The notes beneath the pieces were generated by a model. That model did not search any database and was not told where the DNA came from. It saw only the letters and a program-made list of their open reading frames with translations. A DNA stretch of 64,000 nt from Laccaria trichodermophora (Eukaryota > Basidiomycota > Agaricomycetes > Agaricales > Hydnangiaceae). Below, piece after piece: positions 1 through 36,054 of the stretch. The stretch's first letter is position 1; every line of letters starts with the position of its first letter. The DNA lies in the NCBI GenBank assembly GCA_018417955.1, contig JACTVC010000008.1, positions 620,001-684,000 of the forward strand. Reading direction: 5' to 3'. A program made the translations under genes and the position numbers.

Positions 1-1114
1 AGACCTCTGATAAAGCTGAGATGGCAGACTTCATTGATGTCCTGCTCAGGGCTTCTTCTGGGAGGACTTGTCTTCCTTTCCGAATTCTCCTCACAAGCAG
101 GGTAGAGGAACATATTCGAAAAAAGTTTGATAATTCTCACTCTTGGTTTTTGCACTGTCTGGAGCTAGAGAATTTTGATGCTCGTCGGGACATTGAAATA
201 CATTTTCGGAGTGCATTTGATTGCATCTATAATGAAAATTGGCAAATCATGCAGAGGATCCCAAAGCCCTGGCCATCAGCTCAAGATCTCATTACACTTC
301 TTGACAAGGCTGGCAGTTCATTTGCATTTGCTACTACATTGATCCAATGTGTTGGTGGAGATCTCATACCACACAGGGCCTTGCAAAAACTTCTGGCATC
401 AGGAGCTAATGGTCTGGATTTACTCTATGAACAAGTCCTCTCTTCTGTTTCTTGGACAGAAGACTTCTGTCAGATTCTCAGAACAATCATGGTTCTAAAG
501 GATAACAAATCCATTTCCTTTCTCAGCTCTCTCCTCTCTCTTCAGCATGAGGAGGTCATTTGTGGGCTATTGCAAGTACAGTCCATTATTAGATTCCTGG
601 AGATGATGATACACCAATTGTGCTCTATCACACATCTCTCCAGGATTTCTTGGCCATCCAATCACGATCAAAGCAATATTTTATCAATCCTCCTCTGCAA
701 CACCTTCATCTAGCCATGCTGTCTTTGCAGCATCTGGTAAAACATCCTTCAAAAGACTTTTTTGAGGGTCATGTGGTCAAGTATGCTTTCTTTAATTGGC
801 CACACCATATTCTGTTGGGATTCCAGGAGCAAGGATCAAATGTGGATGAAACAATTACAACCTCTTTGGTAACCCTCATTACAAACTTACTGATTTTTCA
901 GAGTAAAACATGGTACAACACTATGCTGAATATGAGTTCTGGTAAAAGGGAAGGGATGTTAAGCTATGTGAAGGATGGAAAGATTTTGTTTCAGGTCAGT
1001 TATTGCAATTCTCTCAGATGGTTATCATTTCTTGACAGGTATAAGACATTGCAAGGGTCGATTATTACAAAGAATTTAATCAAGATATTTCAACAAGTCA
1101 TTGATTTCTATGAA
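1..1114 (+). CDS. NLR-like (NACHT) gene, C-terminal part of the coding region, 5' end outside window
   Basis: Fungal NLRs are STAND NTPases used in non-self recognition and incompatibility. The visible protein starts in the post-Walker B region (Leu-Leu-Thr-Ser-Arg sensor-like motif near 90) and runs through the helical region typical of basidiomycete NACHT proteins (an LYEQVL-type block near 425; an LYHTSLQDFL-type block near 623-652). No Walker A lies in the window. The frame changes once near 595-600: frame 3 up to about 595, then frame 2 to 1114. One missing base in the run ttcctgg explains it, so this is a frameshifted allele or a sequence error. The last long exon ends with codon GAA (1112-1114) followed by donor GTAAGA, in phase 0. 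No ankyrin, WD40, TPR or LRR repeats follow; single-codon exons do. NACHT assignment is fairly sure; the sensed ligand is unknown. Confidence 0.75.
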
Positions 1115-2905
1115 GTAAGAGTTTATAACGGAGATGTCTCCAGTTATTTATTGAGATCTTCCAACAGACAGTAAGTAACAGGAGTGTAATTCTGCTCACA
1201 AGTTAATCTGTAAGGTTAATAGGAGGTATGTGGTTCTATACAGTGATTAAGATGTATCAAAATAGCATATTGATTTTTTTACAGAATGTAAGCCAAGTTA
1301 TAACAAAATTTTATTGCTATTGATAAAGCACAGGAAGTGAGAACAAAACAATCATCAAGAGAAGAATAGAATTATTCTGATTGCTGTTTTTTCTTGCAGA
1401 ATGTATGTCTACAAATTGTTCAAGTTTTTATCTATTCTCATGGTTGTCATTAGTTTGTGGGCCAATATTTTGCATAACATGTCGCATCTTATCAGCAGCT
1501 GTCTGTTTCTTTCAGAAAGTAAGTGTTAACTGTTGACCTTGCTACTTGTACAGCTAATGTTCTTGTTTATGAATTTAGAAGGTGATATATGGTCTATTTA
1601 CATTGTCTCTGTATGAATATAAGGGATTTCTTTAGTGGGTAGGTTATTATTAAGTTTCTGAAATAACTATGTTCTGACTCAATTCTCTTCTACACCTACC
1701 ATTTGCTAGCTTGTGAGTTGTTCCTCTATTAACTATTAACTCATATGGTGACTCATTCTCCAGCCTTTCCATTTCTTGTGCACTGTTCTGGTGATTATGA
1801 TGTGCTGTTCCCTATTTCAGAAAGTATGCTTTCCTGCATTTGATTTTGCACACTTCTAAAACACATGCCCTGGCCATTCTTTTATAGAAAGTGAGTTGGT
1901 CTTGTTGTTGATATGCACTCTTCTGGTGAGATTGACTGTGGCCTGTCTTGTTTCAGAATGTGAGTTGGCCTGGTTTTTAATGTGCACTCTTCTGGTGAGA
2001 CTGACTGTGGCCTGTCTTGTTTCAGTGGGTGAGTTGGCCTGGTTTTTAATGTGCACTCTTCTGGTGAGACTGACTGTGGCCTGTCTTGTTTCAGAGGGTG
2101 AGTTGGCCTGGTTTTTAATGTGCACTCTTCTGGTGATACTGACTGTGGCCTGTCTTGTTTCAGGGGGTGAGTTGGCCTGGTTTTTAATGTGCACTCTTCT
2201 GGTGACACTGACTGTGGCCTGTCTTGTTTCAGTTTGTGAGTTGGCCTGGTTTTTAATGCACACCCTTCTGGTAACACATATTTTGGTGCTTCTTTTTAGC
2301 CAGTGAGTTTCTTTGCTTTTGGCCATGAATTACTCTTATCACACTATCTCTTCTTACTTTCCTTAAGAAAGTATGTGGTTTCTCCTGCATATCTTGTAAG
2401 TTTTATTTTGTACATTTTGTTTTTCAATCTGTAGCTATTCAGTCATTATTCTTTATCAGGTAATCAATCTTCAATAAATATCTTTTAAGGAGGTTAGTCA
2501 AGTTTAAGCATTCCATAGACCAACTTTATAACATCTCTTCACTTCATTTTTTTAGACTGTAGGTTGTCCATTCACTCTCTTTTCCATCACTCTGATATAT
2601 GGTTATTCTAAATCAGATTGTATGTTTTTATTTCTCATTATAGAAGAATGCTCATGTTTTGTAGCTTGTATGTCTTTGATCCATTTCCAATTCCAGCTCC
2701 TCTTTCAACCATTCTTTTTGTCAGAAAGTATGTACTTCTTCACATTATTTAACCAGGTCACTTATTTCCAATATATAGTGGGCAAGTCAACTCCATTTTC
2801 TACCATATTAGAATCTTTGGTGTCATACAACTCTCCCATTTTTAGAGGGTATGCTTTTTTTCTATCTGTTACCACTTACTCAATATTCATGTTCAAAATA
2901 TATAG
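1115..2905 (+). other. Array of about 26 single-codon (3-nt) exons separated by short introns
   Basis: After the NLR exon the sequence repeats AG|NNN|GT. Codon and first base: ACA 1168, GAG 1223, AAT 1285, GAA 1334, AAT 1400, TTT 1454, AAA 1516, AAG 1579, TGG 1636, CTT 1710, AAA 1821, AAA 1888, AAT 1957, TGG 2026, AGG 2095, GGG 2164, TTT 2233, CCA 2300, AAA 2368, GAG 2490, ACT 2556, ATT 2617, CTT 2665, AAA 2725, TGG 2779, AGG 2846. Donors are mostly GTAAGT, GTGAGT or GTATGT; one is GCAAGT (2782). Acceptors usually follow a T-rich stretch. Introns are 45-71 nt except 1713-1820 (108 nt) and 2371-2489 (119 nt), which look like fusions of two after loss of a codon's splice sites. All codons lie in phase 0 with the upstream exon and none is a stop. 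The tail would be rich in Lys (6), Trp, Asn and Glu (3 each). Splicing is inferred, not observed. Confidence 0.72.
1891..2302 (+). repeat. Tandem repeat of 69-bp intron-plus-codon units
   Basis: Six consecutive units begin with GTGAGT and end with TTTCAG or TTTTTAG plus three bases. Five have a 66-nt intron (1891, 1960, 2029, 2098, 2167); the last (2236-2299) has 64 nt and a diverged 3' half. Introns at 1960 and 2029 are identical; those at 2098 and 2167 each differ from their neighbour by one base. Each carries a CTGAC branch-site-like motif about 20 nt before the AG. The three bases after each AG are all different (AAT, TGG, AGG, GGG, TTT, CCA). Open frames on both strands here are by-products of the 69-bp period, a multiple of three. 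Confidence 0.9.
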
Positions 2906-3196
2906 AGAGACATAGCTATTCAGATTACAATGAGCCTATTTCTTTGCAAGCTGTCAAGTTTTGTATGTGTATTTATCTGTTTTATTTCTTCTTGTTCACC
3001 ATCTCTATTCCTCTTAGTGGTTGCTACATCTCCTATACCAATGGTTTCTTTGACATGTCTATCATTGAGTTATGTAGATACTAAGGAGAAGCAAAAATTC
3101 TATGTACTCAGTTTCAGTTTCAGTTTCAGTCTCTTGTGGTGTTTGTATATGACATATTCATTGCTGAGACTACCACCCTACAGCATTGTGGCCTGA
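2906..3196 (+). CDS. Predicted terminal exon of the NLR gene (97 codons incl. stop), hydrophobic
   Basis: The intron starting at GTATGC 2849 can end at TATATAG 2904-2905 (57 nt, with a CTTAC branch-like motif). From 2906 the frame is open to TGA 3194-3196, in phase 0 like the single-codon exons. The TAG at 2903-2905 closes the same frame just upstream, so the open stretch begins exactly at the acceptor. The product has two hydrophobic segments (about residues 9-40 and 70-88) around a polar DTKEKQK-like patch, so it could be membrane-associated. Caution: the DNA is T-rich and T-rich codons give hydrophobic residues by default. No family is recognised. Confidence 0.5.
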   Translation, partial: RDIAIQITMSLFLCKLSSFVCVFICFISSCSPSLFLLVVATSPIPMVSLTCLSLSYVDTKEKQKFYVLSFSFSFSLLWCLYMTYSLLRLPPYSIVA

Positions 3197-4874: not shown

Positions 4875-6331
4875 TTACACTAACTCACAATAAAGAATGT
4901 CACATGATTTTTCTTACAAAGTTGTCACTATCACACAAGAACCAAACATTTTGAGACTTAGGCTCTGGTGTATGAAACATAGCCAAAGAGGTGTAGATTG
5001 TATATACCAAGTTTAGGGGATGAATAATTGAAAACTCAGGATAAGGCAGGGAATTGACTGTGACAAGTGCCAAAAATGGGATGTAACAAAGTGGGAAATT
5101 CTAAATGACTGCAACCTACAGAAAGCAATTCACAACTTGAGGAGGGGTATTTTTTCACACTGGATCTCCCTGCTATTGGTATGAGCTGCATAAAGTCTCT
5201 GGGCTAGAAAACTTAATATCCTCCTCTAAAAGGTAAATTTGAACTTGTTCACCATTCTATGTATTTTTCACTCCATATATTTGTTGGATTGAGGTAAAAT
5301 AACTCCCCATCAATGTTTGTAGTATGTATAATACAAAAGATAGGTAGAAATGTTAAAATGAACATTGCATGATGTTTGTAGAAGAAGATTCTGAGAGTTT
5401 TTCTGGAAGTAAACAAGTATCTACAATATTGGTCCTTCTTTTCTGCAAGACAAAAAAATGCTACCATCCTTTTGAATAGTTCCATGGAGACTCAAGATGT
5501 CCTTTTAACAATGCCTGAAGTATAGCATGATAAAAAATTAATTTGCACTGGGTACAGCTTGGACCTCAATTCACCAAGAAAAATGTCAAGGATTGGTCCA
5601 GGATAATTGCTATATGTAAAATGTACTTTTATTGTGGACTTTCCAAGCTGTACCCAGTGCAAATTAATTTTTTATCATGCTATACTTCAGGCATTGTTAA
5701 AAGGACATCTTGAGTCTCCATGGAACTATTCAAAAGGATGGTAGCATTTTTTTTGTCTTGCAGAAAAGAAGGACCAATATTGTAGATACTTGTTTACTTC
5801 CAGAAAAACTCTCAGAATCTTCTTCTACAAACATCATGCAATGTTCATTTTAACATTTCTACCTATCTTTTGTATTATACATACTACAAACATTGATGGG
5901 GAGTTATTTTACCTCAATCCAACAAATATATGGAGTGAAAAATACATAGAATGGTGAACAAGTTCAAATTTACCTTTTAGAGGAGGATATTAAGTTTTCT
6001 AGCCCAGAGACTTTATGCAGCTCATACCAATAGCAGGGAGATCCAGTGTGAAAAAATACCCCTCCTCAAGTTGTGAATTGTTTTCTGTAGGTTGCAGTCA
6101 TTTAGAATTTCCCACTTTGTTACATCCCATTTTTGGCACTTGTCACAGTCAATTCCCTGCCTTATCCTGAGTTTTCAATTATTCATCCCCTAGACTTGGT
6201 ATATACAATCTACACCTCTTTGGCTATGTTTCATACACCAGAGCCTAAGTCTCAAAATGTTTGGTTCTTGTGTGATAGTGACAACTTTGTAAGAAAAATC
6301 ATGTGACATTCTTTATTGTGAGTTAGTGTAA
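4875..6331. repeat. Foldback: near-perfect inverted repeat, arms about 690 bp, 78-bp loop
   Basis: 4875-5563 is the reverse complement of 5642-6331 with only a few mismatches (for example an A7/T8 run difference near 5452/5749). The loop is 5564-5641. The outer ends are ttacactaactc and its complement; sequence beyond them differs. No clear target duplication was found at the ends. Transcription across it would give a long hairpin RNA. Small ORFs inside (for example 5249-5485) resemble no family I know. It shares no obvious sequence with the foldbacks at 30 and 54 kb. Confidence 0.9.
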
Positions 6332-13194: not shown

Positions 13195-15280
13195 TGGGAA
13201 ATAGTACAAATACCCGGGTTTCACCTTGAGTGATTGAATCGATTCCATATTAAATCATCGTGTCTGAGCCAGTGCATTTTTCAGGGAAAAGATGTGTGAG
13301 CTGGCACCATGTCCGGGTGAAATTACACCAAGCAGACATGAATTACATCAGTAAAGGTGCACATCGGGTGATGCAGGCATTTGAATTCTAAACTGTTGAA
13401 GTACCTTGGCTGGTGCCATGTCCAGATGCAAAATAATCAAGCAGACAAGTGAATGAAATGGGTAAAAATGCCTGGGCTGCACATCGGGTGATATTAAATT
13501 GTTGAAGTACTTTGGATGGGTGAAAAACGACTGAGCAGACAAGTGAATTAAATCATCAAAAGTGCCCGGGCCATGTCTCAGATAATAGAGCCGATTTTAT
13601 ATTAAATTGGTGAAGTACTTTGGCTGGTGCCAAGGTCAAGTGGAAAATAACCGAGCAGACAAGTGAGTTAAATCAGCAAAAGTGCTTGGGCTGCGTCTCG
13701 GATAATAGAGCCGATTTACTATTAAATTGTTGTACTTTGGCTGGTGCCAAGGCCAGGTGAAAAATGACCGAGCAGACAAGTGAATTAAATCGGTAAAAGT
13801 GCCCAGGCTACATCTCGGGTAATAGAGCCGATTTAATGGTAAATTGGTGAACTACTTTAACTGGTGCCGAGGCTGAGTGGAAAATAACCAAGCAGACAAG
13901 TGAATCAAATCGGTAAAAGTGCCCAGGCTATGTCTCAGGTAATGGAGCCAATTTAATATTAAATTGGTGAAGTACTTTGGCTGGTGCCGAGGCTGGGTGG
14001 AAAATAACCGATCAGACAAGTGAATTAAATCGGTAAAAGTGCCCAGGTTACGTCTCGGGTAATAGAGCCAATTTAATATTAAATTGGTGAAGTACTCTAA
14101 GTGGTGCCGAGGCCGAGTGGAAAATAACCGAGCAGACAAGTGAATCAAATCGGTAAAAGTGCCTGGGCTGCATCTTGGATAATAGAGCTAATTTAATATT
14201 AGATTGGTGAAGTACGTTGGCTGGTGCCGAGGCCGGGTGGAAAATAACCGAGCAGACAAGTGAATTAAATCGGCAAAAGTGCCCAGGCTATGTCTCGGGT
14301 AATAGAGCCGATTTAATATTAAATTGGTGACGTACTTTGGCTGGTGCCGAGGCTGGGTGAAAAATGACCGAGCAGACAAGTGAATTAAATCGGTAAAAGT
14401 GCCCAGGCTACGTCTCGGGTAATAGAGCTGATTTAATATTAAATTGGTGACGTACTTTGGCTGGTGCCGAGGCTGGGTGGAAAATAACCGAGCAGACAAG
14501 TGAATTAAATCGGTAAAAGTGCCCAGGCTACGTCTCGGGTAATAGAGCTGATTTAATATTAAATTGGTGACGTACTTTGGCTGGTGCCGAGGCTGGGTGA
14601 AAAATGACCGAGCAGACAAGTGAATTAAATCGGTAAAAGTGCCCAGGCTATGTCTCGGGTAATAGAGCCGATTTAATATTAAATTGGTGAAGTACTTTAA
14701 GTGGTGCCGAGGCCGAGTGGAAAATAACCGAGCAGACAAGTGAATCAAATCGGTAAAAGTGCCTGGGCTGCATCTTGGATAATAGAGCCAATTTAATATT
14801 AGATTGGTGAAGTACTTTGGCTGATGCCGAGGCCGGGTGGAAAATAACTGAGCAGACAAGTGAATTAAATTGGTAACAATGCCTGCGCTGTGTCACGGGT
14901 AATAGAGCCGATTTAATATTAAATTGGTGAAGTACTTTAACTGGTGCTGAGGCCGAGTGGAAAATAACCGAGCAGACAAGTGAATTAAATCGGTAAAAGT
15001 GACCAGCCTGCATCCCGGATAATAGAGCTGATTTACTATGAAATCATTGAAGTACTTTGGCTGGTGCCGAGGCCAGGTCGAATATAACCAAGCAGACAAG
15101 TGAATTAAATTGGTAAAAACACCTGGGCTGCTGCTGATGATTAAATATGAAATTGTTATGCTGTCTACGGATGGTTGAAGTGGACCACTACTGAGCCTAC
15201 AAGTGAAGTATATCACTGAACATGCCTGGGTTGCATCTGTATCATTTCAGTCTGGGTGTAATATTACTGAGCAGACAAGA
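13195..15280 (+). repeat. 120-bp satellite array, left orientation
   Basis: The anchor gcagacaagtga recurs at exactly 120-bp spacing from about 13,771 to 15,091 (12 units), with more diverged units on both sides. Each unit contains a GCCGATTTAATATTAAATTGG-like AT-rich core and a gcccaggct motif. Reading frames through it are open on the minus strand because 120 is a multiple of three; they are not genes. Confidence 0.92.
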
Positions 15281-16430: not shown

Positions 16431-17860
16431 TGAATATCAAATCGGTTCTATTATCTGATGTGCAACCTGGGCATTTCTACCATGTTATTTTTTACCCGGC
16501 CTCGGACCAGCCAAAGTATGACAATTTAATATCCGTCACCCAATGTGCAGTCCAGGCACTTTTACCAATTTAATTCACCTGTCTGCTCGATTATTTTCTA
16601 CCTGCCCTTGGCACCAGCCAAGGTACCTCAACAATTCAATATTAAATTGGCTCTATTATCCGATGTGCAGCCCAGGCACTTTTATCAATTTAATTCAGTT
16701 GTCTGCTCAGTTGTTTTCCATCCAGCCAAAGCACTTCAACAATTTAATACTAAACAGGTTCTGTTATCTGAGATGCAGCCCGGCATTGTTACTGATTTAA
16801 TTCACTTGTCTGCTTGGTTATTTTTCACCCAGCCTCGGCACCAGCCAAAGTACTTCACCAATTTAATATTAAATTGGCTCTATTATCGGAGACGCAGCCC
16901 AGGCACTTTTACTGATTTAATTCACTTGTCTGCTCGGTTATTTTCCACTTGGCCTCGGCACCAGTTAAAGTATTTCACCAATTGAATATTAAATCGGCTC
17001 TATTACCCGAGACGCAGCCCAGGCATTGTTACCAATTTAATTCACTTGTCTGCTCGGTCATCTTTCACCCGGCCTCGGCACCAGCCAAAGTACTTCACCA
17101 ATTTAATATTAAATTGGCTCTATTATCCAAGATGCAGCCCGGGCACTTTTACTGATTTAATTCACTTGTCTGCTCGGTTATTTTCCACCTGGCCTCGGCA
17201 CCAGTTAAAGTACTTCATCAATTTAATATTAAATCGGCTCTATTACCCAAGACATAGCCTGGGCACTTTTACCGATCTGCTCGGTCATTTTTCACCCGGC
17301 CTCGGCACCAGACAAAGTACGTCACCAATTTAATATTAAATAATCTCTATTATTCAAGATGCAGCCCGGCCACTCTTACTGATTTAATTCACTTGTCTGC
17401 TCAGTTATTTTCCACTCGGCCTTGGCACCACTTAAAGTACCTCACCAATATATTATTAAATCGGCCCTATTACCTGAGACACAGCCTGGGCACTTTTGCC
17501 AATTTAATTCACTTGTCTGCTCAGTTATTTTCCCGGCCTCGGCACCAGCCAAAGTACTTCACCAATTTAATATTGAATCAGCTCTATTACCTGAGACGCA
17601 GCCCGAGCACTTTTGCCAATTTAATTCACTTGTCTGCTCGGTTGTTTTCCACCCAGCCAAAATACTTCAACAATTTAATATTCAACAGGTTCTATTATGC
17701 GAGACGCAGCCCGGGCATTGTTACCAATTTAATTCACTTGTCTGCTCCATTATTTTTCACCCAGCCTTGGCACTAGCTAAAGTACTTCAACAATTTAAAA
17801 TTAAATCGGTTTCATTATCTGAGATGCAGCCCAGGCACTTTTACCGATTTGAAGCCAAGC
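16431..17860 (-). repeat. 120-bp satellite array, inverted relative to 13.2-15.3 kb
   Basis: These are the same 120-bp units as the left array but reverse-complemented (anchor cttgtctgctc at about 16,577, 16,697, 16,806, 16,926, 17,046, 17,166, 17,393, 17,513, 17,631 and 17,742). Some units have lost 10-20 bp. With the left array it forms a foldback of about 4.7 kb with a roughly 1.1-kb loop. Confidence 0.9.
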
Positions 17861-28305: not shown

Positions 28306-31300
28306 ATGTCCTCCACCCTCACCATACAAGCTAAAGCTCACAATCTCGACCCCGGGTTTTTGGATGATGTTAGGTTCCAAACAGAATCGCTCCTGAGATT
28401 CTTCAATCGACATCAAGCAGCTCTTATGAATTCCAATGACACCAACCAACCGACATTAGAAGCATGTGCCTTGGACAAAGCTGTAAGTAACTACCTTATA
28501 TTTTGTTGAATGACACTTAGTTTCACCAAGGTAACATTGGTAAAGACTTTGTCAGGCAAGCAGCTGTGGTGTGAGGAATCCCAGTGGCTCCATCCCGCCA
28601 GGATCTGGGTATACACCGACATGTTGCGAGTCATGGGCGGGCCCTCGGTCGATTGGAACAGACTTTATGCAGTCCCACAGACCACCACCCCTACATTCTT
28701 CATGGAAGGTTACGAGGGCCCCTCTCCCCCCATTCCTCCCATTACGTCAACCATTCCGACATCGGCAAATACGTCGCTCCCAGCCCAATCTTCGCTATCG
28801 GCAGACACACAACCGTCATCTGTCCCTATGCCAAATTTGTCACTCCCAGCCCAATCTTCGTTGCCCCCAATATCGGCAGACATATCTGTCCCTATACCAA
28901 ACGCTCCCCAACGCCCATCAACTCCAAAAGCCGGCCCAGCACCAGAAAAGAAGCCAGCCGAGCCCAAACCTCAACAAAGTCGAGCAAAACCCTCGGCCAA
29001 CACGAGCAGTGGGAGAAAGAGGAGAGGGGACTCCCTCGACGCCCGGCCGAGGAAGATGCGCATTGTCAGCGCAAAACTTGTTGATGAAAGCAGCGCTGAG
29101 GAGACGCCAACGCCCAAACCCAATTCACGAAACTCGGGCAACACTGCCAAGCCGAGGTCGAAACAACAGCCCGTCGTCGAGATAACTGTAAAGCCCAAAT
29201 CCAAAGCGGCACCTCGGGCTAGCCCAGAGACAGCAAAGTTGGCACTGAAGGCCCAGGCATCGGCAGAGAAGCTTGAAAAGCAGAACGCGGCCATTCAATT
29301 GGGAGAATACAAGATTGCCGTCAAGCCCTGTGTAGCCTGCAGTAGACGAAAGGACAGAGAGGTCGTCCCATGCGCAGAGAGCGCCAGAGATGGGCTCGCC
29401 GCCTGTTTCACTTGCAACACGGGCAAGACGAGATGCAGCAAGGCAGGGGGGAATTCGAAGAAGACTGAGGGTGAGGAGGAAGAGGAAGTGAAGATCGTGG
29501 TCAAGAAAACGAAGCGCAAGGCAAAGGATGAAGAAGCCGAGGACGGGGGAGAGATGGGAGAGAAGGGAAAGAAGAAAACCAAGAAATCGAAGGCTAAGAA
29601 GTCGGAGGATATCAAAATGGCAGAGGGAGCCGAGGACGGGGGAGAGGAGGAAGCTGTGGTCGTTCGAAAACCCAAGAAGGCAAAGAAGGACGTAGAAATG
29701 GCTGAGGTTTCTGAGGGAGAGAGCTTCGATTTCGGGTCTATAAAGGAGGAGGATTCAGAGATGGTGGACATGACCTCGGGCAGGGATGCCGAGGTCGGTA
29801 CTTCTTCGCGACCTGACAAAGGCAAGGCGCGGGCAACTCCAGCCATTGTCATTGAACGACCAACACCAACACCCCCAGTCCAACCCAAGTTGAGTCTGGC
29901 CATGGATGAAATGCCCACCATGCCCGACGTTGGGCAATTATCAGGTAAGAGTTTATCAAATCAGTTTTTCCTTACTAACCAGCCTAGCTTCCCTCATACC
30001 CAACATGGGGGAATCATCAGGCATCGTGGCCGACCTCGTGCAAACATCAGCAGCAGAAGACCTCGGGCAATCATCAGGCATCGTGGCCGACCTCGGGCAA
30101 ATATCAACAGGAGGAGGGGACCTCGGGCAATCATTAGGTAAGATTCAATCAAATCAATTTTACCTTGCTGACCAGACTAGATTTTGCTCCAACGCCCATC
30201 ACGACCGACCTCGGGCAATCAGCAAGTGCTGCAATGTCCAACGTGCCCGACCTCGGGCCATCGTCAGGTAAGACTCCATTAACTTTGTTTTTCCCACAAG
30301 TGGCTACCACTTTTATCATATAACTAAGGCACTTGCCATAAGAGCTCTGTGTATAAGTCCACGCTCTTTATGAGATATCGCTCTGGATATTTCATTGAGT
30401 GTCTTGGTGGCTTTCATTAACTATTTCATTCCTGTTTCAGTGTGGTTTCAATAGATATTTCATTAGTATTTCAGGCTATTTCATTGCGCTTTTCATAACT
30501 AATGCTCTGATCTTTCAATAGATATTTCATTAAGAATGTTAGGCCCTCTCATTGTGATTTTCATTAATTACTCTGTGCGCTTTCAATGGATTTTTCATTA
30601 ACATTTCATGATATTTCATTGCGCTTTTCATAACTGATGCTCTGTGTTTTCAATAGATATTTCATTAAGAATGTTAGGCCCTCTCATTGAGATTTTCATT
30701 AATATTTCAGGATATTTCATTGCACTTTTCATAACTAATGCTCTGATCTTTCAATAGATATTTCATTAGGAATGTTAGGCTCTCTCATTGAGATTTTCAT
30801 TAATTACTCAGTGCGCTTTCAATGGATTTTTCATTAATATTTCAGGCTATTTCATTGCGCTTTTCATAACTAATGCTTTGTGTTTTCAATAGGTATTTCA
30901 TTAAGAATGTTAGGCCCTCTCATTTAGATTTTCATTAATATTTCAGGATATTTCATTGCACTTTTCATAACTAATGCTCTGTGCTTTCAATAGATATTTC
31001 ATTAGGAATGTTAGGCTCTCTCATTGAGATTTTCATTAATTACTCAGTGCGCTTTCAATGGATTTTTCATTAATATTTCAGGATATTTCATTACACTTTT
31101 CATAACTAATGCTCTGTGCTTTCAATAGATATTTCATTAGGAATGTTAGGCTCTCTCATTGAGATTTTCATTAATTATTCAGTGCGCTTTCAATGGATTT
31201 TTCATTAATATTTCAGGATATTTCATTGCGCTTTTCATAACTAATGCTCTGCACTTTCAATGGATATTTCATTGGGAATGTTAGGCTCTCTCATTGAGAT

Positions 31301-34300
31301 TTTCATTAATTACTCAGTGCGCTTTCAATGGATATTTCATTAATATTTCAGGCTATTTCATTGTGCTTTTCATAATTAATGCTCAGAATGATTTCACCTA
31401 TCAGGGTCCATGTAATGGGATGTTGGGATGATGGTCACATGACCAATTACCAAAAATGGTCAAAAAACGAAAGTTGTAGCCCTACACTGTAGCTTCTGAA
31501 ATCTGTTTGAATTATGTTCTGAAGTGCTCCCATTGTGGAGATATGAGGTAAAGGGATTTCAAAAGTGTCATGTTTTTTTTTGTATTTTGCGATTTTCTCC
31601 ATGAAAACAAAACCAAATAACATGATTTCAGTACATTTAGAAAGCTAAAAGAAAGGGCTACAATTATTGTATCGTGGGAAAATTGACCAAAAAAGGAAGG
31701 TGCATGCCAATGAGATATAGACTACTGAGTTTACTGATAGACTACAAAAAAGTTGGACTTAGACTACACAGTTTACTGATACATTATAAAGACTACAAAA
31801 GTCAAACTTAGACTACAAAGCTTGCTGATAGACTACAAAAAAGTCAGACTTAAACTACAAAAGCTAGGGTTAGGATATCTTGACTACAAAGTTTGTAGTG
31901 TCCGCTTTTTGTCATTACAAAAGATTATAGTGTGTGCTTTTATATTAGAAAAGTTTGTAGTGTATGCTTCTTGAGACTACAAAATGTTGTAGTGTGTGCT
32001 TTTTTAAAAAGTTTGTAGTGTCCACTTTTTGAGGCTACAAAAAGTTGTAGTGTGCACTTTTTCATTAGAAAAGTTTGTAGCGTATGGTTTTTGAGACTAC
32101 AAAAGTTTGTAGTGTGTGCTTTTTTATTAGAAAAGTTTGTAGCGTATGGTTTTTGAGACTACAAAAGGTTGTAGTGTGCGCTTTTTTATCAGAAAAGTTT
32201 GTAGTGTATGGTTTTTGAGACTACAAAAGGTTGTAGTGTGCGCTTTTTTATCAGAAAAGTTTGTAGTGTCTGCTTTTTGAGACTACAAAAGTTTGTAGTC
32301 AAGTCCTTGGTGCTATCTATGTTATAGGGATGAGGTTGAAGAATTGCCATCATATTGCCAGTGCTGCAACATTAGTTTTGCCATCATACACAAGTTGTCT
32401 TTCACATTAGGAAAGGTCATTCTAAGCCTTTCATATCAGTCTCTCACATCATGCCCAAGTTGTCTGTCAAGCTAGGGATGATAATCATGTTGATATCTAC
32501 TGAATACATGGTCAACACACAACATGATCTGACTTAAAGACACCTCCAAGGATGAATCAGCCCATCATTGAAAGCTAACTTAGTCATGATGTCAAAAACT
32601 GGTGATGTTATGTCAATCTTTCAGTGATATCCCCACATGAATTTATCAAAGTTGACTATATTTCAGACAGGCAAGTAGCTATCAATTTGAAAGATGACAG
32701 GATGAAAGCTAACTTGGTCATGATGTCAAAAACTGGTGATGTCAAGTCAATCCTTCAGCGAAATCCCCACATGAACTGATAATTGAGGATAAAATTGTGT
32801 ATGATGGAAAAACTAATGTGGCAGCACTGGCAATATGATGGCATACCAAACTTTTGTAGTCTCAAAAAGCGGACACTACAAACTTTTCTAATGAAAAAGC
32901 GCACACTACAACATTTTGTAGTCTCAAAAAGCGGACACTACAAACTTTTCTGATAAAAAAGCGCACACTACAACCTTTTGTAGTCTCAAAAACCATACAC
33001 TACAAACTTTTCTAATGAAAAAGTGCACACTACAACTTTTTGTAGTCTCAAAAAGTGGACACTACAAACTTTTTAAAAAAGCACACACTACAAACTTTTC
33101 TAATATAAAAGCACACACTACAATCTTTTGTAATGACAAAAAGCGGACACTACAAACTTTGTAGTCAAGATATCCTAACCCTAGCTTTTGTAGTTTAAGT
33201 CTGACTTTTTTGTAGTCTATCAGCAAGCTTTGTAGTCTAAGTTTGACTTTTGTAGTCTTTATAATGTATCAGTAAACTGTGTAGTCTAAGTCCAACTTTT
33301 TTGTAGTCTATCAGTAAACTCAGTAGTCTATATCTCATTGGCATGCACCTTCCTTTTTTGGTCAATTTTCCCACGATACAATAATTGTAGCCCTTTCTTT
33401 TAGCTTTCTAAATGTACTGAAATCATGTTATTTGGTTTTGTTTTCATGGAGAAAATCGCAAAATACAAAAAAAAACATGACACTTTTGAAATCCCTTTAC
33501 CTCATATCTCCACAATGGGAGCACTTCAGAACATAATTCAAACAGATTTCAGAAGCTACAGTGTAGGGCTACAACTTTCGTTTTTTGACCATTTTTGGTA
33601 ATTGGTCATGTGACCATCATCCCAACATCCCATTACATGGACCCTGATAGGTGAAATCATTCTGAGCATTAATTATGAAAAGCACAATGAAATAGCCTGA
33701 AATATTAATGAAATATCCATTGAAAGCGCACTGAGTAATTAATGAAAATCTCAATGAGAGAGCCTAACATTCCCAATGAAATATCCATTGAAAGTGCAGA
33801 GCATTAGTTATGAAAAGCGCAATGAAATATCCTGAAATATTAATGAAAAATCCATTGAAAGCGCACTGAATAATTAATGAAAATCTCAATGAGAGAGCCT
33901 AACATTCCTAATGAAATATCTATTGAAAGCACAGAGCATTAGTTATGAAAAGTGTAATGAAATATCCTGAAATATTAATGAAAAATCCATTGAAAGCGCA
34001 CTGAGTAATTAATGAAAATCTCAATGAGAGAGCCTAACATTCCTAATGAAATATCTATTGAAAGCACAGAGCATTAGTTATGAAAAGTGCAATGAAATAT
34101 CCTGAAATATTAATGAAAATCTAAATGAGAGGGCCTAACATTCTTAATGAAATACCTATTGAAAACACAAAGCATTAGTTATGAAAAGCGCAATGAAATA
34201 GCCTGAAATATTAATGAAAAATCCATTGAAAGCGCACTGAGTAATTAATGAAAATCTCAATGAGAGAGCCTAACATTCCTAATGAAATATCTATTGAAAG

Positions 34301-36054
34301 ATCAGAGCATTAGTTATGAAAAGTGCAATGAAATATCCTGAAATATTAATGAAAATCTCAATGAGAGGGCCTAACATTCTTAATGAAATATCTATTGAAA
34401 ACACAGAGCATCAGTTATGAAAAGCGCAATGAAATATCATGAAATGTTAATGAAAAATCCATTGAAAGCGCACAGAGTAATTAATGAAAATCACAATGAG
34501 AGGGCCTAACATTCTTAATGAAATATCTATTGAAAGATCAGAGCATTAGTTATGAAAAGCGCAATGAAATAGCCTGAAATACTAATGAAATATCTATTGA
34601 AACCACACTGAAACAGGAATGAAATAGTTAATGAAAGCCACCAAGACACTCAATGAAATATCCAGAGCGATATCTCATAAAGAGCGTGGACTTATACACA
34701 GAGCTCTTATGGCAAGTGCCTTAGTTATATGATAAAAGTGGTAGCCACCAGTCGTTTTTCCTTACTATCCAACCTAGATGTTACTGCCCTGTTGCCTGAC
34801 CCGATCCCAGTTCCCACCAATGACATGGGGATCGTAGGCAATAGCGGTCCAACCTCGGTCGAGCCCAAGCAGTCGGTTTCGAACTCACGCCGCGTCAATC
34901 CGCCTCATGCTGAAGAACTTCATCGTAAGTTCTTCTATGTTCTTATCGAACATCCTTTGCTTAAAAACTTAGTTGATACAGCACTTCATATCAAGGTGGA
35001 TTTAAGGTCCCTCAGTCCGCCACCGGCATTCGACATGCATGCAATCCAGCACGAGATCAGGAGACTCGGTCAAGACCAGACCGACATTCAAAACACTCTC
35101 CGCGAACAACAGGCTCAGGTGACCATCGTGTCAGAGCATACTGGCATCGACCCCAGCGCTCTTCTCCCCCCATTCGTGAACTCCACTTCACTCAGTGAAC
35201 GTCTGGCCTCCCTGGAGGAAATGACCCGAAGACTTCAAGACGTTGAATCTGCTGGCGATTGTCTGGCTGAACAAGTCAAAACTTTGGAAACGTTGTCGTG
35301 GTTTGAAGAGGAAAGAAGAATGAATGCACACAACGCGAGGATCGACCGATTTGAAGAGCTTCACCAAGCACGGTGGAAGGATGCCGAAGCCAGGCTCGAA
35401 CAACACGAGATGGACTTGTGCACGATAAGGGTTCAGCATGAAGCTTTTGAGGGGGAGGTGAGGAATTTGATCAAGGTGACGCCGGCTGCATTGCAAGAAC
35501 AGGTCGAGAAGTCTATGGCCGAACTTACGAACCGAGTCCACCAGGCCAAGCAAGCACAGGATACTCTGACGACATCATATAGGGCACTGACCGAGGGTCA
35601 GATAAAACTTGGTAACTGACAAACGATTGTGGAGCAAATTGTCCTCAATCATTTCGGACGCAAAGTCATGACCGATGCCCAGATCGATGCGACCAAGAGG
35701 ACGGCCGATATCGGCATCAACACGCTGAAGGGTACTATGGATATTGGCGTCAACACCGATCGATCAGCAGAGGAATCGGTCCAAGCAACGAGCCCGGCCC
35801 CAATCCAATCAGCAGCTCTGACGCCAGCGCAAGCTTTGAGCCTGGCTCCAGTTCAATCGGCAGCTGTACAAGCGTCGAGCCCACCTCCAATTTCCACAGC
35901 TCCGAATCTGGTTCAAGCTGAGAGCCCGGCCCCAATCTATTTGGCTCCCAAGCCAGTTCGTGCAACACGCCGCGGCCGATCACCCTCTCCCTTCACAGTT
36001 GGCACCAGGAGGTCTCCTCGGCTGATACCTTCATCTGGTATGTTCCCTACTTGA
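28306..36054 (+). pseudogene. Cys-cluster (zinc-binding) protein gene, split by a foldback element in intron, one nonsense codon
   Basis: ATG 28306. Exon 1 to 28482; the next exon follows an intron of 38 or 63 nt. The long exon encodes Pro/Ser-rich sequence, basic stretches and a Cys cluster near 29,327-29,450 (PCVACSRRKD...PC...CFTCNTGKTRC) that looks zinc-binding, then acidic/Lys runs. Two 43-nt introns (29,945-29,987; 30,138-30,180) and a third, also 43 nt once the inserted element is removed (30,268-30,294 plus 34,762-34,777), separate short exons with SSGIVADLGQ repeats. The last exon (from 34,778) has a long coiled coil (RLASLEEMTRRLQDVESAG region). An in-frame TGA at 35,617-35,619 is followed by 144 more codons in the same frame ending with a TRRSPRL motif. 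Function unknown; similar genes accompany mobile elements. Confidence 0.6.
30295..34753. mobile_element. Foldback element E1 (4459 bp), non-autonomous, hAT-like target duplication
   Basis: Flanked by the 8-bp direct repeat GTTTTTCC (30,287-30,294 and 34,754-34,761). Inserted in the third 43-nt intron of the host gene; two sister introns show the uninterrupted site. Ends are CACAAGTGGCTACCAC and, inverted, GACTGGTGGCTACCAC. Each arm is about 2 kb and nearly identical to the other: outer part with repeats of a tttcattaatatttcagg type, a 300-bp core (31,400-31,710 and 33,340-33,650), and an inner part with repeats of a gtttgtagtgtgcgctttt type. The arms meet at about 32,295 and 32,845; the loop region holds smaller inverted and direct repeats. 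No transposase gene inside. Confidence 0.92.

What the first reader, a model, noticed from the sequence alone, without database searches (positions are those of the whole stretch)
1115..2905. Run of about 26 exons of exactly one codon in an NLR gene
Seen: the motif AG-NNN-GT recurs 26 times on one strand with intervals of 45-71 nt (two of 108 and 119), always three bases between acceptor and donor, in phase 0 with the preceding NLR exon, without a stop codon. Known: microexons of 3 nt exist but I know of no run of this length, and none at the C-terminus of a fungal NLR. Inference: the receptor tail is assembled one residue per exon; skipping any exon keeps the frame, so alternative splicing could give a very large set of tails from one gene.
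Basis: partly seen in the sequence, partly recalled or inferred. Interest (0 to 1): 0.95.

Follow-up and report, generated by a model that had tools for sequence, protein, structure and literature searches.

The report
Fungal immune-receptor tails, one codon per exon
In a mushroom-type fungus a family of immune-receptor genes ends in dozens of exons of exactly one codon each, with near-identical introns but highly variable codons; a similar arrangement has been reported from a truffle, so this looks like a second, distant case of a rare way to make receptor tails variable.

Summary
Window 1115-2905 holds 26 single-codon exons (25 GT donors, one GC), phase 0, no stop, introns 45-71 nt plus 108 and 119. 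It is not chance: 22 YAGNNNGTRNG sites against 0.35 expected. At least 18 NACHT (NLR) genes of this genome carry such arrays; 10 others examined do not. In 15 arrays 525 codons include 0 stops, about 33 expected. In two young arrays the codon columns are saturated with differences while introns stay about 95% identical. One array has mutually unrelated introns and still exact 3-nt exons, so this is no tandem-repeat artefact. Array genes form one clade. Best reading: a hypervariable C-terminal receptor tail encoded one residue per exon. Splicing and translation are inferred; no transcript could be examined. The window's own copy looks like a pseudogene. What looks new is a basidiomycete case without a Pfam ankyrin match, and evidence that the codons are diversified.

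The parts
9..1114 (+). 3' part of an NLR (NACHT-type) coding region, ending ...DFYE before the donor at 1115; the frame changes near 593 and the N-terminal half lies about 1.5 kb upstream of the window, behind an insertion
   Evidence: tblastn with the L044 NLR exon: residues 171-365 at window 9-593, 366-539 at 593-1114, residues 12-173 at C76:618002-618487; Pfam NACHT and NPHP3_N in L044
1115..1823 (+). 5' conserved block: eleven single-codon exons (1168, 1223, 1285, 1334, 1400, 1454, 1516, 1579, 1636, 1710, 1821) and their introns
   Evidence: AG and GT kept in 11 of 11 aligned arrays for nine of the ten exons 1168-1710 and in 10 of 11 for the one at 1400; 1821 read, its counterpart present in the four paralogs listed
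1824..2302 (+). variable core: seven single-codon exons (1888, 1957, 2026, 2095, 2164, 2233, 2300) between repeated introns; 69-nt tandem unit
   Evidence: tandem unit 1891-2272, 5.5 copies, 93% matches; codons differ unit by unit
2303..2905 (+). 3' conserved block: eight single-codon exons (2368, 2490, 2556, 2617, 2665, 2725, 2779 with GC donor, 2846)
   Evidence: flanks kept in 11 of 11 aligned arrays for seven of the eight, 10 of 11 for 2368
2906..2950 (+). last exon; in eight paralogs a short peptide such as RDTEL or RETQLSRLQ and a stop, here out of that frame
   Evidence: the end coordinate is nominal, since no stop was found in the stretch translated for this copy

Best explanation
These genes encode NACHT-type NLR receptors whose C-terminal tail is built one residue per exon. 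A conserved opening (T-E-N-E-N-F-K-K-W-L-K in the window) and closing (K-E-T-I-L-K-W-R, then e.g. R-D-T-E-L and a stop) frame a core of about 7 to about 80 single-codon exons that varies in length and sequence between genes. Shown: the architecture, its restriction among the genes tested to one NLR clade, the absence of stops, the hypervariable codons, splice and branch-like signals. Inferred: the introns are removed one after another by ordinary spliceosomal splicing, the codons are joined and translated, and the tail is the variable recognition surface. The near-identical introns would serve as recombination substrate, so that units are duplicated, lost and shuffled as single residues while selection keeps the residues diverse. 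Skipping any exon keeps the frame, so alternative inclusion, as cited for Tuber, may add further tails; I put that part at about 45%.
For: Exon length 3 stands out: 447 splice pairs over 11 arrays against at most 28 at any other length 0-30; in the non-tandem 5' block 78 against at most 10, in the 3' block 44 against at most 7. 0 stops in 525 codons of 15 arrays, 33.5 expected from base composition. In L045 67 unit pairs are identical in the other 66 nt, 52 of them differ in the codon, 36 at two or three positions; in L044 45, 41, 35. Four close paralogs: 5'-block codons differ at 23 of 180 sites compared, other intron sites at 99 of 2602. Array L059: introns as unlike as shuffled ones, 0.50 against 0.47, yet exons of 3 nt. 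Ten array genes form one group with 100/100 support, nine tested non-array genes lie outside. YTRAY branch-like motif in 203 of 266 core introns against 75 of 266 in one shuffle. Common phase-0 end with a stop in eight of 11 arrays by script. P0050 of Laccaria amethystina ends ...DFCE-TVSNRRTMLLKS, as if the first single-codon exon were included and the next intron read through.
Against: No transcript or peptide evidence. No database protein holds the spliced tail (4 candidates shared words, none E <= 10); gene finders would be expected to miss it. In wider groups the excess of codon change in the 5' block is small: five paralogs 0.120 against 0.080, all eleven 0.248 against 0.203. In L039 and L042 some intron columns are as variable as one of the codon columns, and in L041, L043, L047 and L048 the codons vary only 2.8-4.0 times as much as the flanks. 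The window's own gene is broken, and L046, L048 and L040 show frame changes or a stop in the NLR exon. TAG may be partly avoided because it adds an acceptor; that does not explain the lack of TAA and TGA.
Confidence: 0.82

Rival explanations
1. A tandem repeat that happens to contain splice-like motifs: the region is an untranslated or intronic satellite and the 3-nt 'exons' never enter mRNA.
For: Core units are tandem repeats of 63-70 nt; no transcript was seen.
Against: 0 stops in 525 codons; codon columns saturated while the rest is conserved; 3-nt exons in arrays whose introns are unrelated (L059) and in the non-tandem blocks; a shared stop after the last exon in eight arrays.
Confidence: 0.08
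2. The repeat is translated straight through as a 23-residue repeat protein (69 = 3 x 23); an open frame of 608 codons exists in L045.
For: Open frames of 608 codons in L045, 444 in L044, 367 in L042; 288 of 420 spacings under 80 nt are multiples of three.
Against: 132 of 420 spacings are not multiples of three; translation out of the NLR exon meets a stop after 5-24 codons in 11 of 11 arrays; in that frame NNN could not form a stop, so the lack of TAA, TAG and TGA would be unexplained (reading of the frame).
Confidence: 0.03
3. Single-codon exons are real, but all are included constitutively; the diversity is only in the germ line, made by unequal exchange between units, and skipping plays no role.
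For: Tails already differ greatly between genes; within-gene intron identity is clearly above the pooled between-gene mean of 0.836 in 7 of 11 genes, and 169 of 266 core introns have their best match in the same gene; L039 shows a duplicated run of several units.
Against: Near-identical donors and acceptors along the core give no obvious barrier to skipping (inference); alternative splicing is cited for the Tuber genes.
Confidence: 0.45
4. An intron-spreading element (introner) inserted copies of one intron between every codon of an older uninterrupted tail, which would explain identical introns around different codons.
For: Identical 66-nt introns around different codons; intron identity hardly falls with distance along the array in most genes.
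Against: All 144 listed hits of the intron signature (of 205) lie in 15 NLR arrays; insertion exactly every third base dozens of times is hard to explain; array genes with different introns (L059, L060) have the same exon length.
Confidence: 0.08

Closest known systems
NACHT-ANK (nank) genes of the truffle Tuber melanosporum with 3-bp mini-exons (Iotti et al. 2012, seen only as cited in PMC4986451, PMC3689799, PMC9815663 and PMC10197012)
   Same: Fungal NACHT NLR family, dozens of codon-sized exons that concern the C-terminal recognition part, proposed role in diversification (passages)
   Different: Ascomycete with ankyrin repeats and reported alternative splicing; here a basidiomycete, no ankyrin match, splicing not observed. 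Whether the truffle introns are tandem repeats or its codons hypervariable could not be checked
Fungal NLRs with highly conserved WD, ANK or TPR repeats (HET-D/E/R, HNWD of Podospora)
   Same: Repeats under concerted evolution with hypervariable positions under diversifying selection, at the C-terminus of an NLR (passages of PMC4986451)
   Different: There the repeat is coding protein; here the repeat is nearly all intron and the variable position is one codon-sized exon
Microexons of other organisms, e.g. neuronal microexons and schistosome micro-exon genes (recalled, except search listings)
   Same: Very short exons that keep the frame
   Different: I recall no run of dozens of exons of exactly 3 nt there
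TAL effector repeats (recalled)
   Same: Near-identical tandem units with hypervariable residues
   Different: Protein repeats in bacteria, no introns

Membership tests
Fungal NLR (STAND) receptors | NACHT or NB-ARC nucleotide-binding domain | tested here: met
   NACHT 36.9 bits (cut-off 26.7) and NPHP3_N in the L044 NLR exon; 79 NACHT matches in the genome
Fungal NLR (STAND) receptors | C-terminal superstructure-forming repeats (WD, ANK, TPR) | tested here: not met
   No such Pfam match in the L044 NLR exon, P0001 or P0050; the single-codon tail itself was not scanned. NLRs lacking annotated repeats exist, so this does not exclude membership (recalled)
Tuber melanosporum nank mini-exon genes | dozens of 3-bp exons in the C-terminal part of a NACHT gene | tested here: met
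Tuber melanosporum nank mini-exon genes | ankyrin repeats | tested here: not met
Tuber melanosporum nank mini-exon genes | alternative splicing of the mini-exons in transcripts | not testable with these tools
   no transcripts of this genome at hand
Tuber melanosporum nank mini-exon genes | common descent of the genes or of the exon arrays | not tested
   no Tuber sequence was available in the collections used; the paper is not held
Introner elements | copies of the intron in many unrelated genes | tested here: not met
   144 of 205 hits of the intron signature were listed and all lie in 15 NLR arrays; 61 hits were not listed

The most novel reading that the evidence does not exclude
Stochastic or regulated skipping of single-codon exons turns each gene into a generator of very many receptor tails within one mycelium, an adaptive-like repertoire in a basidiomycete that arose independently of the truffle case.
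Probability: 0.3. Interest if true: 0.95.

Novelty: new variant of a known kind. Interest (0 to 1): 0.76.

Why it matters
It shows one-codon-per-exon receptors in a second fungal phylum, with at least 18 genes whose germ-line record can be read: single residues are duplicated and diversified while the introns stay nearly identical. It makes questions testable: how a spliceosome handles more than 90 consecutive 3-nt exons (96 strict sites in L043), whether tails differ between transcripts of one gene, and what they recognise. It also suggests that automatic annotation misses the variable part of these receptors: no database protein with the spliced tail was found, and the annotated protein P0050 appears to stop after the first such exon.

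Tried and rejected
Rejected: chance; tandem-repeat artefact; unspliced 23-residue repeat; a general habit of this genome's introns (TTTYAGNNNGTAAGT 55 against 35 in the reversed control, with the surplus in the NLR arrays; TTTYAGNNNGTATGT 27 against 33). Led nowhere: viral contigs (7 stretches with one pattern match each, read as chance; no relative by protein). A dynamic-programming chain of exons missed many conserved-block exons, probably because its matrix was dominated by core repeats, and was replaced by the paralog table. A first tblastn run used a wrong flag and returned nothing, repeated. My notebook lists one exon at 1829; the sequence puts it at 1821. A protein search with the spliced tail found nothing. 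Papers: seven searches listed no report of such exons in Laccaria or another basidiomycete; I saw only listings and, for four papers, passages; most subscription journals are not held.

Full report
What is there. The window is C76:620001-684000 of a 59-Mb genome in 77 contigs. The best named relatives of its NLR family are Laccaria amethystina proteins (up to 77% identity), so the host is probably a Laccaria-like agaric; the species is not given. From 1115 to 2905 the plus strand carries 26 exons of one codon between a large NLR exon ending ...DFYE and a short last exon.

Not chance, and not only in this gene. Dinucleotide shuffles give 0.35 sites where 22 are seen. The core motif TTTCAGNNNGTGAGTTGGCC occurs 205 times in the genome and never in the reversed control. 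Of these, 144 distinct places were listed (100, 78, 34 in both) and fall into 15 clusters; 61 places were not listed. Each cluster's nearest listed hit lies 1.6-3.5 kb downstream of a NACHT match on the same strand (one search lists 79 NACHT matches). A conserved 3' signature with the GC donor is found at 15 places, 0 in the control: 14 of the 15 clusters plus C34:1144723. DNA behind 14 NACHT genes showed 19-21 strict sites in L059, L060, L061 and L062 and 0-1 in the ten others. L062 is one of the 15 clusters, so at least 18 genes have arrays (15 plus L059, L060, L061) and 10 do not; 28 of 79 NACHT places were looked at. Three of the 18 (C76 near 320, 403 and 713 kb) rest on pattern hits alone.

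Anatomy. Alignment of 11 arrays shows a conserved 5' block of single codons (T E N E N F K K W L K in the window), a variable core, and a conserved 3' block (K E T I L K W R). A short last exon follows that ends RDTEL*, RETQLSRLQ*, KDTELSKF* or the like in 8 of 11 by script; in L042 the script picked a wrong acceptor and the alignment shows KDTTEL* by eye; L043 is not held that far; the window copy runs on. The core ranges from 7 codons in the window to nearly 80 in L043.

Why the codons look translated. Splice-pair counts peak at exon length 3 over lengths 0-30, also outside the repeats. In 15 arrays 525 codons contain no stop where 33.5 would be expected from base composition. A single TAA among 447 was a shifted match inside TTTCAG|GCA|GTAAGT, and one search dropped sites within 12 nt of another. 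The three codon columns are the three most variable of the unit in L045, L044 and L040; in L039 and L042 some intron columns equal or exceed one of them. Of unit pairs identical in all other positions, 52 of 67 in L045, 41 of 45 in L044, 6 of 9 in L039 and 3 of 5 in L040 carry different codons; L042 has no such pair. In four close paralogs the 5'-block codons differ 3.4 times as often per site as the rest of the introns; with five paralogs 1.5 times, with all eleven 1.2 times, since several block codons are conserved. Of 270 differing codon pairs in the 5' block 255 change the amino acid; pairs are not independent. Branch-like motifs occur in 203 of 266 core introns, 75 after one shuffle. Cysteine is absent (0 of 525). 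Few NNC, NGT and GTA codons suggest further constraints, from CpG loss (window CpG o/e 0.52) and cryptic donors (inference).

Why it is not a repeat artefact. In L059, behind the NACHT gene that branches deepest among the array genes (NACHT locus L017), introns are about as unlike one another as shuffled ones (0.50 against 0.47), yet exons are 3 nt. L060 has its own unit of about 66 nt, 62-74% identical to the 69-nt consensus. Read-through is excluded by 132 of 420 spacings that are not multiples of three and by stops 5-24 codons after the NLR exon in 11 of 11 arrays.

Evolution. Ten array genes among 30 NACHT stretches form one group with 100/100 support and nine tested non-array genes lie outside; eleven were untested, and one of these, the decayed L032, falls inside. 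Within-gene intron identity is clearly above the pooled between-gene mean (0.836) in 7 of 11 genes, equal in L046 and at or below it in L041, L043 and L047; 169 of 266 core introns have their best match in the same gene. This suggests concerted evolution in the younger arrays. P0050 of L. amethystina ends ...DFCE-TVSNRRTMLLKS, which fits inclusion of the first exon (ACA) and read-through of the next intron as its sequence stands in the paralogs here; if so the structure is older than the species. The L. amethystina DNA itself was not seen.

State of the window's copy. tblastn with L044 places its N-terminal half 1.5 kb upstream, before an insertion that ends at about window 9, with a frame change near 593. 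It is probably a pseudogene. In seven of the 11 arrays the NLR stretch compared is one open frame (L039, L041, L042, L043, L044, L045, L047); L040 has a stop near its start, L046 and L048 show frame changes. Function should be studied in the open paralogs.

Precedent. Passages in PMC4986451, PMC3689799, PMC9815663 and PMC10197012 cite Iotti et al. 2012 for a Tuber melanosporum NACHT-ANK family with dozens of 3-bp mini-exons that are alternatively spliced. The original is not held. This makes the present case a new variant of a known kind, in another phylum and without an ankyrin match. Seven paper searches listed no basidiomycete report.

What remains open. That the exons are spliced in and translated is inferred from sequence evolution. 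Whether skipping makes many tails is unknown; I give it about 45% as a real contribution and 30% as a repertoire generator. After the recount of this report one number was lowered (seven, not eight, open NLR stretches; seven, not eight, genes with clearly higher within-gene identity); the odds did not need to change.

Noticed in passing
window 4875-6331: Two nested perfect inverted repeats (arms of 584 and 112 nt, 100% complementary): a fold-back element or an assembly artefact.
   Followed up: partly
window 13518-15118 and 16547-17850: A 120-nt satellite in two blocks whose consensus units look like reverse complements of each other.
   Followed up: no
window 30437-31384 and 33664-34624: Two blocks of 135-nt and longer tandem repeats that look like inverted copies of one another.
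   Followed up: no
L039 (C76:581501-588500), core: The codon run AGG ATA GAG GAT occurs three times, each with a 70-nt step after ATA, as after a recent duplication of several units at once.
   Followed up: partly
L059 (C1:1628501-1632600): TGG followed by a GC donor (GCAAG) occurs three times in this array, as if the closing block had been copied.
   Followed up: no
15 arrays: Cysteine codons are absent and NGT, GTA and NNC codons rare among 525 single-codon exons; splice and CpG constraints may explain the latter, hardly all of the former.
   Followed up: partly
C76:618487 to about window 9: A ~1.5-kb insertion splits the NACHT exon of the window's NLR copy; its nature was not examined.
   Followed up: no
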